From NCBI GenBank assembly GCA_903897715.1, contig CAIUCS010000065.1:1-32365 (forward strand): a DNA stretch of 32,365 bases, read 5' to 3'. Below the pieces are notes generated by a model. It was given only the letters and a program-made list of their open reading frames with translations, was not told where the DNA came from and did no database searches. The translations under genes and the position numbers were made by a program. Shown here piece by piece: positions 3 to 28,475 of the stretch; position 1 is the stretch's first letter; each line of letters opens with the position of its first letter. The stretch is from an uncultured Synechococcales cyanobacterium (lineage in GTDB: Bacteria; Cyanobacteriota; Cyanobacteriia; CAIUCS01).

Positions 3-507
3 CATTTATTCGGCACCATTACCAACGACCAGATGGCATTGAATCCCATCGGTAAAATTGCCCACGACGAATGGCTCAAAACCGAATCCATGCGCCCTAA
101 CATCCGATTGCATGAATTCATCGTCATGCCCAACCACATCCACGGCATCATCGAAATCATCGGCGCTCTGCCCCATCCTGTACGGGCGCATTGCATGGGC
201 CCTCTTGATATCCGCCCCCCCCCCCGCAATCGGTGCCGCCTATAACGATTCCCCATCTGAACAATTTGGGTGCGGGCAACAACAATTTGGGCGTGGGCAA
301 CACGCCCCTACGGTGGGTGATATTATACGGGGTTATAAATCCGCTGTTACCAAACACGTTAATGTATTACGCAATACCCCCTGTCTGCCTGTATGGCAAC
401 GCAATTACCATGAACATATCATTCGTGACGAAACCGCCTATTTGAAAATCGCAGAATATACCCAAACCAACCCCCAGCCATGGCAGGAGGACACCTATCA
501 TGACTAA
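3..507 (+). pseudogene. RAYT / IS200-like (Y1) transposase, 5'-truncated by the window and frameshifted
   Basis: This is the remainder of a REP-associated tyrosine transposase, a single-strand DNA transposase of the Y1 superfamily. The first part reads in the frame starting at base 3 and contains the hallmark MPNHIHGIIEI, where HxH is the metal-binding pair. That frame dies at a stop near 243. The rest continues in the +1 frame to 507 with IIRGYKSAVTKHVN and the typical C-terminal block (VWQRNYHEHIIRDE, then AEYTQTNP), which carries the region where family members end. The two frames join at a run of 11 C (215-225); removing one C restores a single frame, so either a slippage mutation or a base-call error is possible. 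The start lies outside the window. It abuts restriction-gene debris, in line with a degraded accessory locus. Confidence 0.85.
260..301 (+). repeat. Two tandem copies of a 21-bp unit inside the transposase remnant
   Basis: The unit at 260-280 and the unit at 281-301 both begin AACAATTTGGG and end GGGCAAC, differing at only two or three bases between. Because 21 is a multiple of three, the array keeps the reading frame and encodes two copies of a QFGxGQ-type heptapeptide in the second half of the transposase. It lies in the variable linker between the HxH half and the tyrosine half, where extra sequence is tolerated. Confidence 0.8.
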
Positions 508-24463: not shown

Positions 24464-24578
24464 ATCAATATCACCACCCAACGCTCCATGGGAAAAGTCA
24501 TTCAATATCCCTTGTTGCCGCCTGGATTTTGATTTGAACCAATGCTAATCATTGAAACCCCTGTTCCAGGCAATAACC

Positions 24579-26186
24579 ATGTCCTACTTTCAAGATGAAC
24601 GACTCCTGTTTCACCCCGTTCCACCAAAGGGGGATGCCATCCCAACTGCCTTTGCCTTTCCCAACCAATACAGCGTAGGGATTACCAGTTTAGGATATCA
24701 AGTGGTATGGGCAACCCTAGCCAGTCGAGCCGATGTAAATGTTGGTAGAGTATTTACTGATGTACGGGAGCAATTGCCCTCACCCTTAGAATTAGTTGGG
24801 TTTTCCCTTTCCTGGGAATTAGACTATGGCAATGTTCTCAGCATCCTGGAAACCTTACACATTCCTATTTGGGCTCACGATCGCAAGCAAACACACCCTC
24901 TGGTGTTTGGGGGTGGAGCCGTACTCACTGCTAATCCTGAACCATTCGCCCCCTTTTTTGATGTCATTTTGTTGGGAGACGGGGAAGAATTATTGGGAAG
25001 ATTAATAGATACCTATCAATGTGTACGGGGAAGCGATCGCTCCCTCCAGCTCCATGAACTAGCCAGGGTTCCTGGCATATACGTACCATCATTATACGGC
25101 GTGGACTATGAAAACCCCGTTGGGTTCATAAAAACTATCCAGCCCCTTCATCATTCCCATCCATCCATCATCGAAAAACAAACCTATCGTGGTACTTATT
25201 TGTCTGCTTCAACAGTGGTCACCAAGAGGGCGGCATGGGACGACATCTATATGATTGAAGTGGTGCGTAGTTGTCCCGAATTATGTCGCTTTTGTTTAGC
25301 CAGTTACCTCACCCTACCCTTTCGCCCCGCTAATTTAGAAGAATTCCTGTTACCAGCAGTGGATCGGGGGTTTGCCATTACCCCGCGACTCGGGTTATTG
25401 GGGGCATCCATCACTCAACATCCGGAGTTTGAAGTACTCCTCCGTCACCTTACCCATTCCCGTTATGACGGAATGCGGCTGACCTTAGCTTCAGTACGCA
25501 CCAATACGGTTACAACCCAATTAGCCCAAACCCTGGTGAAACGGGGAACCAAATCCTTAACCATTGCCGTAGAAAGTGGATCTGACCGATTGCGACACCT
25601 AATTAATAAAAAACTCACCACGGATGAAATTATCCAGGCTGCCAAAAATGCAAAGGCTGGGGGACTCACCGGGCTGAAGTTCTATGGCATGGTGGGGTTA
25701 CCAGGGGAATTACCTGAAGACATTGACCTAACGGTAAAGATGATGCAAATGGTTAAAAAAGCAACCCCCGGATTGCGCCTCACTTTGGGATGTAGCACCT
25801 TTGTTCCCAAAGCCCATACCCCCTTTCAATGGTTTGGGGTGAATTCCCAGGCAAAAAAAAGAATGGATCAGTTGCAAAAACAATTACGACCCATGGGGAT
25901 AGATTTTCGACCGGAAAGTTATGACTGGTCAACGATTCAAGCATTAATCTCTAGGGGCGATCGCCGACTGGCTCCCCTTTTAGAACGAGTGCGGCATTAT
26001 GGAGACTCCCTGGGTAGTTACCGACGAGCATTCAAAGATTTGCGCGGTCAATTACCTGACATGGAGTTTTATGTTCACGATCACTGGTCAACGGATCAAA
26101 TGCTTCCATGGAGCCATATAAACGGTTCCTTGCCCTTGGCTACATTAGTTAAACATCAACAGTCGTCTTTCACGGATAGGGAGTGA
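24579..26186 (+). CDS. B12-binding-domain radical SAM protein of unknown function
   Basis: A radical SAM enzyme of 535 residues. The [4Fe-4S] motif is C232-x3-C236-x2-C239 (CPELCRFC). The preceding 200 residues have the look of a cobalamin-binding-like domain (VGFSLSWELDYGNVLSILE, VFGGGAVLTANPEPFAPFFD, LLGDGEE). Later blocks SLTIAVESGSDRLR, KFYGMVGLPGE and STFVPKAHTPFQW are typical of the same group, which is widespread in cyanobacteria. ATG 24579 opens the conserved region (MSYFQDERLLF); the TTG at 24552 adds nine residues. The reaction is unknown: relatives act on RNA or small molecules. It stands alone, with sphS upstream on the same strand and repeats after it. Confidence 0.85.
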   Translation: MSYFQDERLLFHPVPPKGDAIPTAFAFPNQYSVGITSLGYQVVWATLASRADVNVGRVFTDVREQLPSPLELVGFSLSWELDYGNVLSILETLHIPIWAHDRKQTHPLVFGGGAVLTANPEPFAPFFDVILLGDGEELLGRLIDTYQCVRGSDRSLQLHELARVPGIYVPSLYGVDYENPVGFIKTIQPLHHSHPSIIEKQTYRGTYLSASTVVTKRAAWDDIYMIEVVRSCPELCRFCLASYLTLPFRPANLEEFLLPAVDRGFAITPRLGLLGASITQHPEFEVLLRHLTHSRYDGMRLTLASVRTNTVTTQLAQTLVKRGTKSLTIAVESGSDRLRHLINKKLTTDEIIQAAKNAKAGGLTGLKFYGMVGLPGELPEDIDLTVKMMQMVKKATPGLRLTLGCSTFVPKAHTPFQWFGVNSQAKKRMDQLQKQLRPMGIDFRPESYDWSTIQALISRGDRRLAPLLERVRHYGDSLGSYRRAFKDLRGQLPDMEFYVHDHWSTDQMLPWSHINGSLPLATLVKHQQSSFTDRE

Positions 26187-26207
26187 ACCCATTGAACTTG
26201 TGAGAGT

Positions 26208-26303
26208 ATCCCAATGTTGCACGTTTGCCTTCATCCCCTAACCCATTCTCCCTTTTTGGGAGAATGGGAACCGGATTTAGGGTGAGGGTTGCAACATTGG
26301 GAT
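26208..26303. repeat. Nested inverted repeat, about 96 bp
   Basis: Outer arms of 14 bp (26208-26221, 26290-26303; ATCCCAATGTTGCA) and inner arms of 11 bp (26242-26252, 26258-26268; CCCATTCTCCC) with a TTTTT loop are each perfect. Between them the CCCTAA-like segments also pair imperfectly. It starts 22 bp after the radical SAM stop codon and may terminate it. Its CCCTCACCCTAA-like content links it to the elements at 16917 and 31953. Confidence 0.8.
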
Positions 26304-26328
26304 GCACCCGTTACCGAAAAATTGGGTC

Positions 26329-26766
26329 TAAAGCCCCGCCCCTTTAGGTCGGCTGCTTATTTGGCTTTATGATAGTATTTTATCTGTAGCTAATTTAGAT
26401 AAAATGCTATAGTGTGGAGATGACAGTTAGAGAAGCTAGGTAAAAACACGGAACAGCACAACACTATGCTGCCATTGATAAAGCCATCACAACAGCACAG
26501 TTTATCAAGAATAAATCTGTTCGTTATTCGACGGACAATCAAGGCGCAAATAAAGCCCATCGGTATAGGATCTGTAATACTCTAACTGGGGCTAAACATT
26601 CTTGGTGTTGAATGGAACAAACACAACAGTATTTCAGGGCATGAAGATCTGCACCTGAAGGTGGAAAGGCTGGGAGAAGAGCGCCGCTACTGCTGATGAA
26701 AAATTTGTGTAGCATGTGAACCTCTATAAACCAGTGGTTAAAGTCCCCCCGCCTTTTAATCCGGGG
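26329..26766. mobile_element. Decayed IS200/IS605-type element (deletion derivative)
   Basis: Both ends carry a similar sequence in the same orientation: AAAGCCCCGCCCCTTTAGG near 26331 and AAAGTCCCCCCGCCTTTTAA near 26740, which can form the subterminal hairpins expected of this family. Between them is a fragment of the accessory TnpB protein and no room for a complete gene (full elements are about 1.3 kb or more). The boundaries are estimates. No target-site duplication is expected for this family. Confidence 0.5.
26444..26611 (+). pseudogene. tnpB: TnpB (IS605 OrfB) N-terminal fragment
   Basis: An open stretch without a proper start encodes AIDKAITTAQFIKNKSVRY and then TDNQGANKA, which matches the N-terminal region of cyanobacterial TnpB proteins (EAIRTxQFIRNKxVRxWMDN). 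It ends at a stop at 26609-26611, about 50 residues in, and all nuclease (RuvC-like) motifs are gone. TnpB is an RNA-guided nuclease in intact elements; this remnant cannot act. Confidence 0.65.
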
Positions 26767-26807
26767 AATATATCAATTATCCTTTATTACTAAGAACAAG
26801 TTCTGTC

Positions 26808-28475
26808 ATGGCTAGGAAAAAATTAGTTCTTTCGTTATTAGCACTGACGGGAGTAGTTGCCAGCGGGGCGATCGCCCTCCATTACTTTATACAGACTCGG
26901 ACTGAACCCTTACTGTTGACTCTGGCACGAGTCGTACCCCAGCAGGCACTCACCATTGGCTATATTTCCACCAACAATCAAACCTGGAATACATTCACTC
27001 AATTTGCCCTACCGTTTGACCAAAAAGCAGTTGATGATGGGTTTAAGGTTATAGACCAGTCAATTTTGGGGAATACTAATGTAAGTTTTCAGAAAGATTT
27101 ACTTCCCCTATTCAATGGTTTATTAGTGGCTGTTTTGCCGGATCATTCACCACAACCGTCATCTGACTCAACTATCTTAATTGCCGCCCAGGTGAAGGAT
27201 GGGGTGGGTTTATTGACCTTACAAGATAAATTAAAAAACCAGTCGGGTAACCAGATAAGGGAGGTGAAAATCCAGGAAGTCCCCGTAGTTGAAATAGTAA
27301 CCCCCCATCTTAATTCCCCAGAAGACCAAAACCAAGGGACTCAATCCACCCAAACCACCCATTATGTGGCATTGGTGAACCAAACCGTGATACTTACCAA
27401 TCATCAAACAACCATGGAACAGGCGATCGCCACCACCAAAGGCTCTCCATCCCTGGTTCAACGGCAAGGAATGAATAATATCCTTGCCCACTCGGACTTC
27501 CCGTCCCCCGTCCTGATGGAACTCTTCATTCCAGACTACCCCGCCTTAGTTAACCAGACCCAACAGCAACTGAATACCATTCCCCCCTTGTCCTACCCAC
27601 CGGTTCAATCTGCCATCATTCGGATGGGAGTGGCAGACCAGGAAGGGATTCGGGTACGGGTTGGGTTCACCCTTGATGCCAAAACGGCAAACCTCACCTA
27701 CCAATCCACGGAAGGTAAAATTTTAGACCATCTACCCCAGGAAACCTTTGCACTAATCAATGGTCGAGGGGTTAACCAACTGTGGAAAATGCTGATTAAT
27801 CAGGCAAAAACTGACTCGAAAGTATCGGAGGCAGTTAATCGTATCCGGGAACAGTTTCAATCCTGGAAGTTAGACGCTGATCAGGATATATTCAGTTGGA
27901 TGGATGGTGAATTCGCCCTAGGCATGATTTCTCCATCCCAGGGGTTTCTACCCCCTCTTGGGTTTGGATTAGGAGTAGTGTTGGAAACGAACGATCGCCG
28001 CAAGACTGAAGCAACCCTCACCGCATTAAATCAAGTAGCTGAGCAGAACTTTTTACAAGTAAAACCCCGTAATTTAGGGGGTAAGGAAGTGACTGAATGG
28101 CGTGATGCCAATGGACAATCTACGGTTTTGGGTTATGGTTGGGTGAATGGAAATACAATTTTTGGTGGGATAGGACAACCAATTGTGGAAATGCTTGCTC
28201 AAACCCCAAAAGTGAGTGTACGGAAAGATGAACGGTTTCAGAGGATGAGTAACAGTTTACCATCCCCCAATGGGGGTTACATCTATCTCAACGTAGATTC
28301 TGGGACTTCTGCCCTAGTGAAGGGCTTATTTCAACCCCAAGGAGGTGAATTACGACCGGAGGTGAAGGCTATTACCAACTCTGTGCGTGGTGTTGGTGTA
28401 ACGTTCATCCAACCAAATTCATTAACGGGTCAGTTGGAAGCTATCATTTCATTGAAACCAAATGTCAAAAAATAA
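26808..28475 (+). CDS. DUF3352 domain-containing protein, membrane-anchored
   Basis: A 555-residue protein found throughout cyanobacteria. A single membrane segment (about 7-26) anchors it, with the rest probably exported. The DUF3352 features are visible: the opening VPQQALTIGYISTN, a central domain ending in LPQETFALINGRG, an acidic SWMDGEFALGMIS block, and the late GYIYLNVDSG and NSVRGVGVTF segments. Family function is unknown. ATG at 26808 starts the signal anchor directly. It is preceded by the decayed element and followed by a 292-bp leader of tsf, so it is likely a single-gene unit. No catalytic motif is visible. Confidence 0.83.
   Translation: MARKKLVLSLLALTGVVASGAIALHYFIQTRTEPLLLTLARVVPQQALTIGYISTNNQTWNTFTQFALPFDQKAVDDGFKVIDQSILGNTNVSFQKDLLPLFNGLLVAVLPDHSPQPSSDSTILIAAQVKDGVGLLTLQDKLKNQSGNQIREVKIQEVPVVEIVTPHLNSPEDQNQGTQSTQTTHYVALVNQTVILTNHQTTMEQAIATTKGSPSLVQRQGMNNILAHSDFPSPVLMELFIPDYPALVNQTQQQLNTIPPLSYPPVQSAIIRMGVADQEGIRVRVGFTLDAKTANLTYQSTEGKILDHLPQETFALINGRGVNQLWKMLINQAKTDSKVSEAVNRIREQFQSWKLDADQDIFSWMDGEFALGMISPSQGFLPPLGFGLGVVLETNDRRKTEATLTALNQVAEQNFLQVKPRNLGGKEVTEWRDANGQSTVLGYGWVNGNTIFGGIGQPIVEMLAQTPKVSVRKDERFQRMSNSLPSPNGGYIYLNVDSGTSALVKGLFQPQGGELRPEVKAITNSVRGVGVTFIQPNSLTGQLEAIISLKPNVKK

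What the first reader, a model, noticed from the sequence alone, without database searches (positions are those of the whole stretch)
26329..26766. Deletion derivative of an IS200/IS605 element keeping a TnpB fragment
Similar GC-rich ends about 410 bp apart flank a fragment of TnpB (AIDKAITTAQFIKNKSVRY). The element lost the RuvC part but keeps both ends, so it could be mobilised in trans, and the retained right-end region might still be transcribed as a guide-like RNA. This link to an RNA-guided nuclease family makes it worth a look.
Basis: partly seen in the sequence, partly recalled or inferred. Interest (0 to 1): 0.55.

Follow-up and report, generated by a model that had tools for sequence, protein, structure and literature searches.

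The report
Decayed remnant of tnpB insertion sequence
This is a crippled leftover of a common cyanobacterial jumping gene that once carried an RNA-guided nuclease; it keeps both end pieces but has lost the middle of the gene and looks dead, so it is ordinary.

Summary
Window 26315-26776 (462 bp, just 3' of TTAC at 26311-26314) is an internally deleted IS200/IS605-family element of the tnpB-only kind. Its left end, the first ~52 codons of tnpB, the tnpB tail with the guide-RNA-type region, and the right end match intact 1.37-1.39 kb elements of other cyanobacteria. About 930 bp, with the RuvC region, is missing at 26577-26589. Three IS608-type marks are present: TTAC and AAAG on the left, TCAA on the right. 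The right guide tetranucleotide reads AAGT where the other three aligned own-genome right ends have GAAT, and tnpB has a stop at codon 8. Decayed relatives lie on 12 other contigs; no full-length cognate tnpB was found. No other significant hit crosses this deletion junction, and the other two copies with both ends carry different deletions. This favours separate decay of once-complete copies over spread of a deleted form in trans. A retained guide RNA is not excluded, but no partner nuclease was found. A known kind (compare haloarchaeal PATEs and core-deleted IS605 elements); low interest.

The parts
26315..26776 (+). Whole deletion derivative of an IS200/IS605-family tnpB-only element (462 bp)
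   Evidence: Matches both ends and both tnpB termini of six intact 1.37-1.39 kb elements; several own-genome copies begin at the same left boundary
26311..26314 (+). TTAC, left cleavage/target motif (IS608 CL type)
   Evidence: Sequence; left pattern upstream of tnpB in 19 of 38 relatives examined, against 38 of 1900 mononucleotide shuffles; IS608 motifs from PMC5934647 passages
26330..26333 (+). AAAG, left guide tetranucleotide (IS608 GL type)
   Evidence: kept in 7 of 9 own-genome left ends in alignment A3
26333..26353 (+). Left subterminal imperfect palindrome, by homologous position; pairing weak in this copy
   Evidence: Alignment A3; DNA fold z 0.11, not better than shuffles
26420..26577 (+). 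tnpB codons 1 to about 52, with TAA at codon 8
   Evidence: Alignment A1; stop at 26441-26443
26577..26589 (+). Deletion junction; about 930 bp of the parent missing here
   Evidence: L091: element 1-267 on parent 1-255 and 267-467 on 1184-1383; L109: 1-277 on 1-271 and 279-466 on 1202-1389
26590..26740 (+). tnpB 3' tail and the region that would carry the guide-RNA scaffold
   Evidence: Alignment A2 with own-genome copies and two relatives; role as RNA inferred from ISDra2 (PMC8612924 passages)
26741..26744 (+). Position of the right guide tetranucleotide: AAGT here, GAAT in relatives
   Evidence: alignment A2
26744..26767 (+). Right subterminal imperfect palindrome, by homologous position
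   Evidence: Alignment A2; DNA fold z -1.09
26773..26776 (+). TCAA, right cleavage motif (IS608 CR type)
   Evidence: Sequence; alignment A2; PMC5934647 passages

Best explanation
An IS200/IS605-family element of the tnpB-only kind inserted 3' of TTAC between two open frames. It then lost about 930 bp of tnpB by an internal deletion and has been decaying since (stop at codon 8, altered right guide tetranucleotide). When whole, it would have been moved as single-stranded DNA by a Y1 transposase supplied from elsewhere, while its TnpB with a right-end RNA cut the empty donor site. Shown by sequence: homology of both ends and of both tnpB termini, and the deletion. Inferred: the mechanism of movement, and that the copy is now immobile and without function.
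For: Both halves align to each of six intact relatives, with one large gap between. Left end as in intact elements such as L090 and L091. TTAC/AAAG/TCAA as in IS608. AAGT in place of GAAT. The other copies keep different parts. A search across the junction (26490-26670, 10 of 10 candidates scored) gave, besides the window, two significant hits that stop on either side of it (C123, C114) and one 23-base hit at E 0.84 that I take as chance. A 418-residue TnpB query found 10 places in the genome, each only a piece.
Against: TTAC, AAAG and TCAA are intact, so some excision by a tolerant transposase cannot be excluded. One open Y1 frame covering the whole domain exists and scores as IS200/IS605 transposase (C132, NF033573 70.4 bits, cut-off 55). 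The C59 and C123 copies appear to share a deletion of 39 bp of the tnpB start (by eye; length), which could mean that a defective copy moved once, although a short direct repeat at its edges makes repeated slippage as plausible.
Confidence: 0.9

Rival explanations
1. A MITE/PATE-like non-autonomous element that was, or is, mobilised in trans by a Y1 transposase in its deleted form.
For: Both ends with cleavage motifs kept; one open 152-codon Y1 frame in the genome; three copies (C65, C9, C64) keep both ends; C59 and C123 may share a small deletion.
Against: The three two-ended copies have different interiors, and none has all four IS608-type tetranucleotides: the window copy has AAGT for GAAT, C9 has TTAT for TTAC, C64 has TAAA for TCAA. 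No second copy of the window's deleted form in the genome.
Confidence: 0.06
2. The retained right-end region is transcribed as a guide RNA used by another TnpB in trans, aimed at the empty site TTAC-TTATCC.
For: The scaffold region is still alignable with relatives; in ISDra2 such RNAs of ~150 nt run ~16 nt past the right end (PMC8612924 passages).
Against: No full-length cognate TnpB found in the genome; no Rfam match at threshold; no sigma-70-type promoter-like site in 26150-26900 (a crude scan); element decayed.
Confidence: 0.03
3. A chance resemblance, not an insertion sequence.
For: Profile searches with the short fragment were empty.
Against: 52-residue matches at up to 69% identity and DNA matches of both ends to intact elements; E down to 1.2e-36 within the genome.
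Confidence: 0.01

Closest known systems
Cyanobacterial tnpB-only IS200/IS605 elements (IS1341 group; the group name is recalled), e.g. in Nostoc sp. CHAB 5824 (L090) and Plectonema radiosum NIES-515 (L091)
   Same: Left end, tnpB start, tnpB tail, right end
   Different: Those have a 411-412 codon open tnpB and GAAT at the right end; this one lacks ~930 bp and has AAGT
IS608 of Helicobacter pylori
   Same: TTAC and TCAA cleavage motifs, AAAG left guide (PMC5934647 passages)
   Different: IS608 also has tnpA; this element has none and its right guide is altered
PATEs and core-deleted IS605-type elements of Haloquadratum walsbyi (PMC3119063 passages)
   Same: IS605-type ends kept, core lost, many heterogeneous copies, other small repeats inserted in them
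   Different: Another domain of life; some of those are homogeneous amplified families, which was not seen here

Membership tests
IS200/IS605 family (tnpB-only type) | tnpB homologue | tested here: met
   Start of ~52 codons, up to 69% identity; tail also present. Profile searches with the fragment alone were empty; full-length relative L033 scores 272.6 bits with NF040570
IS200/IS605 family (tnpB-only type) | Left end with target tetranucleotide and guide tetranucleotide before a palindrome | tested here: met
   TTAC...AAAG at 26311-26333; same arrangement in 19 of 38 relatives examined. The palindrome itself does not fold better than shuffles
IS200/IS605 family (tnpB-only type) | Right end with guide tetranucleotide, palindrome and TCAA-type cleavage site | tested here: inconclusive
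   TCAA and palindrome position kept, guide AAGT instead of GAAT; GAAT..TCAA pattern in 20 of 25 relatives with frames of 300 codons or more, not in the window
IS200/IS605 family (tnpB-only type) | Insertion without target duplication at a known empty site | not testable with these tools
   The 38 other genomes are related only at class level
Mobile non-autonomous derivative (PATE/MITE) | Several copies of the same deleted form | tested here: not met
   No second copy across the junction; other two-ended copies differ
TnpB guide RNA (omega RNA) locus | Transcribed right-end RNA with a partner TnpB | not testable with these tools
   No RNA data; no full-length cognate TnpB found

The most novel reading that the evidence does not exclude
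The nuclease-less remnant still makes a right-end guide RNA that loads another TnpB in trans, so that a dead element goes on defending its own insertion site.
Probability: 0.02. Interest if true: 0.55.

Novelty: new member of a known kind. Interest (0 to 1): 0.08.

Why it matters
Little beyond annotation. It documents decay of a tnpB-only IS family in one cyanobacterial genome, with several differently deleted copies, and shows that IS608-like end motifs occur in this family. If the remnant made a working guide RNA it would matter, but nothing found here points to that.

Tried and rejected
Profile and PDB searches with the fragment: no hit; relatedness was shown by locus searches instead. Rfam over 26190-26820 at E up to 10: four matches, all far below their gathering scores (best 18.1 against 90), taken as chance. 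DNA folding of the window and C9 ends: not clearly better than shuffles (z 0.11, -1.09, -0.38, -0.56), so the palindromes are called by homology only. Promoter/terminator scan: no promoter-like site and two terminator-like sites, one in the start of the downstream frame and one on the minus strand at 26473-26452; not pursued. Global alignment with L090 scattered small matches through the deleted part; I relied on the local alignments. MITE-type amplification was rejected because the deletions differ between copies. No viral collection was scanned. The copy list rests on genome-search hits; one search scored 40 of 97 candidates, while (21 of 21; 13 of 13; 10 of 10) scored all of theirs; very short pieces may be missed.

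Full report
Observation. The window lies in a 2.86 Mb, 207-contig genome. The relatives of this element named are all cyanobacteria by their record titles; the 38 other genomes searched are related only at class level. The stretch lies between open frames at 24552-26186 and 26808-28475. The sequence and the family alignments give limits of 26315-26776, just 3' of TTAC (26311-26314) and ending in TCAA (26773-26776).

TnpB fragment. From 26420 the frame reads MTVREAR, a stop, then KHGTAQHYAAIDKAITTAQFIKNKSVRYSTDNQGANKAHRYRICN. A scan of genome contigs found 423 stretches, of which 317 encode relatives and the best 80 were kept; the best is 69% identical over residues 1-52. A plasmid search gave 12 records, all cyanobacterial and all under 60% identity: 4 places annotated transposase, 5 annotated RNA-guided endonuclease TnpB family protein, 3 with no feature. 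Profile searches with the fragment itself were empty, so the family label rests on relatives: L033 scores 272.6 bits with NF040570.

Deletion. Local alignment with six intact elements, chosen from the 80 loci for having both end motifs and an open tnpB, gives two blocks for each. With L091 they are 1-267 on 1-255 and 267-467 on 1184-1383 of a 1378 bp element; with L109, 1-277 on 1-271 and 279-466 on 1202-1389. Block edges vary among the six (left block ends at 255-277, right block begins at 267-312). So about 930 bp is missing at 26577-26589, including the RuvC region (its place in TnpB is recalled), and the tnpB tail is kept in another frame. The six elements have their left end 91-112 bp before the tnpB start, so no tnpA fits between them: they are tnpB-only and depend on a transposase from elsewhere (inference).

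Ends. IS608 has TTAC and TCAA as cleavage sites and AAAG and GAAT as left and right guides (PMC5934647, passages). The window has TTAC, AAAG and TCAA. Of the 80 loci I examined 38 (L072-L110 without L097, whose match lies 19 bases from the locus start; L111-L151 were not examined). The left pattern was in 19 of 38, against 38 of 1900 mononucleotide shuffles. The right pattern was in 20 of the 25 with open frames of at least 300 codons; 19 of these end GTATGTCAA and one (L101) looks spurious. No shuffle control was run for the right pattern, and some loci come from one genome and are not independent. The window matches the left pattern and not the right one: AAGT stands where GAAT is expected.

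Copies in the genome. The left end finds 10 places including the window, the right end 4. Nine of the ten left ends were aligned; C59, which has only an inner part, was left out. TTAC is kept in 4 of 9 (window, C34, C64, C120) and AAAG in 7 of 9 (not C191, C33). Of the 4 own-genome right ends aligned, GAAT is kept in 3 (not the window) and TCAA in 3 (not C64); a fifth right end, at C123, was read by eye only. In all, pieces were read on 12 other contigs: C9, C28, C33, C34, C59, C64, C114, C120, C123, C133, C182, C191, of which C133 and C182 may be one locus. Copies with both ends are C65 (window), C9 and C64. C9 has its left end run almost directly into the right end; C64 keeps a middle piece of tnpB; the window keeps the tnpB start and tail. 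A search across the junction gave no second copy: C123 and C114 stop on either side of it, and a 23-base match in C17 has E 0.84. C59 and C123 seem to share a deletion of 39 bp in the tnpB start, with a short direct repeat at its edges (by eye). On the whole this is the pattern of separate decay.

Partners. A 418-residue relative used as query found 10 places in the genome, all pieces, the window among them; the best covers residues 181-359. The PF01385 search found 7 places, 5 over the cut-off; the longest open frame is 331 codons at C139, below the cut-off and of another TnpB type by eye. PF01797 found 18 places; one (C132, 152-codon open frame) covers the whole domain in one frame and scores as an IS200/IS605 transposase, the other 17 cover parts. 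Whether C132 could act on these ends is unknown.

Literature. PMC3119063 (passages) describes transposase-free PATEs in Haloquadratum walsbyi, some derived from IS605-type elements by core deletion, some amplified, often with other small repeats inserted. PMC8612924 (passages) describes the ~150 nt right-end RNA of ISDra2 whose last ~16 nt come from the flank. Other papers were seen in listings only. I make no claim that this element is absent from print.

Verdict. A decayed, internally deleted tnpB-only IS200/IS605 element. Real, correctly recognised, ordinary.

Noticed in passing
window 26208-26303: A 96 bp repeat with perfect 14 bp inverted ends (ATCCCAATGTTGCA/TGCAACATTGGGAT) directly beside the element; the genome search gives 48 matches with 40 of 86 candidates scored, some being two pieces of one copy: a MITE-like family.
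   Followed up: partly
window 25-507: Remnant of a REP-associated tyrosine transposase; read with stops as X it gives NF047646 at E 7.2e-8, 32.4 bits, below the cut-off of 80.
   Followed up: partly
L005 (C182) and L004 (C133): Two contigs that both end in the same small repeat inside a tnpB-element copy and seem to carry the same 9 bp (ATTCTATCC) on its two sides, so they may be one locus split by the assembly; read by eye.
   Followed up: no
L002 (C34), L042 (C59), L004 (C133): A second small repeat with ends like TTGACTGACAAAAC / GTTGTCAGTCAACC inside several tnpB-element remnants, as small repeats do in Haloquadratum PATEs; read by eye.
   Followed up: no
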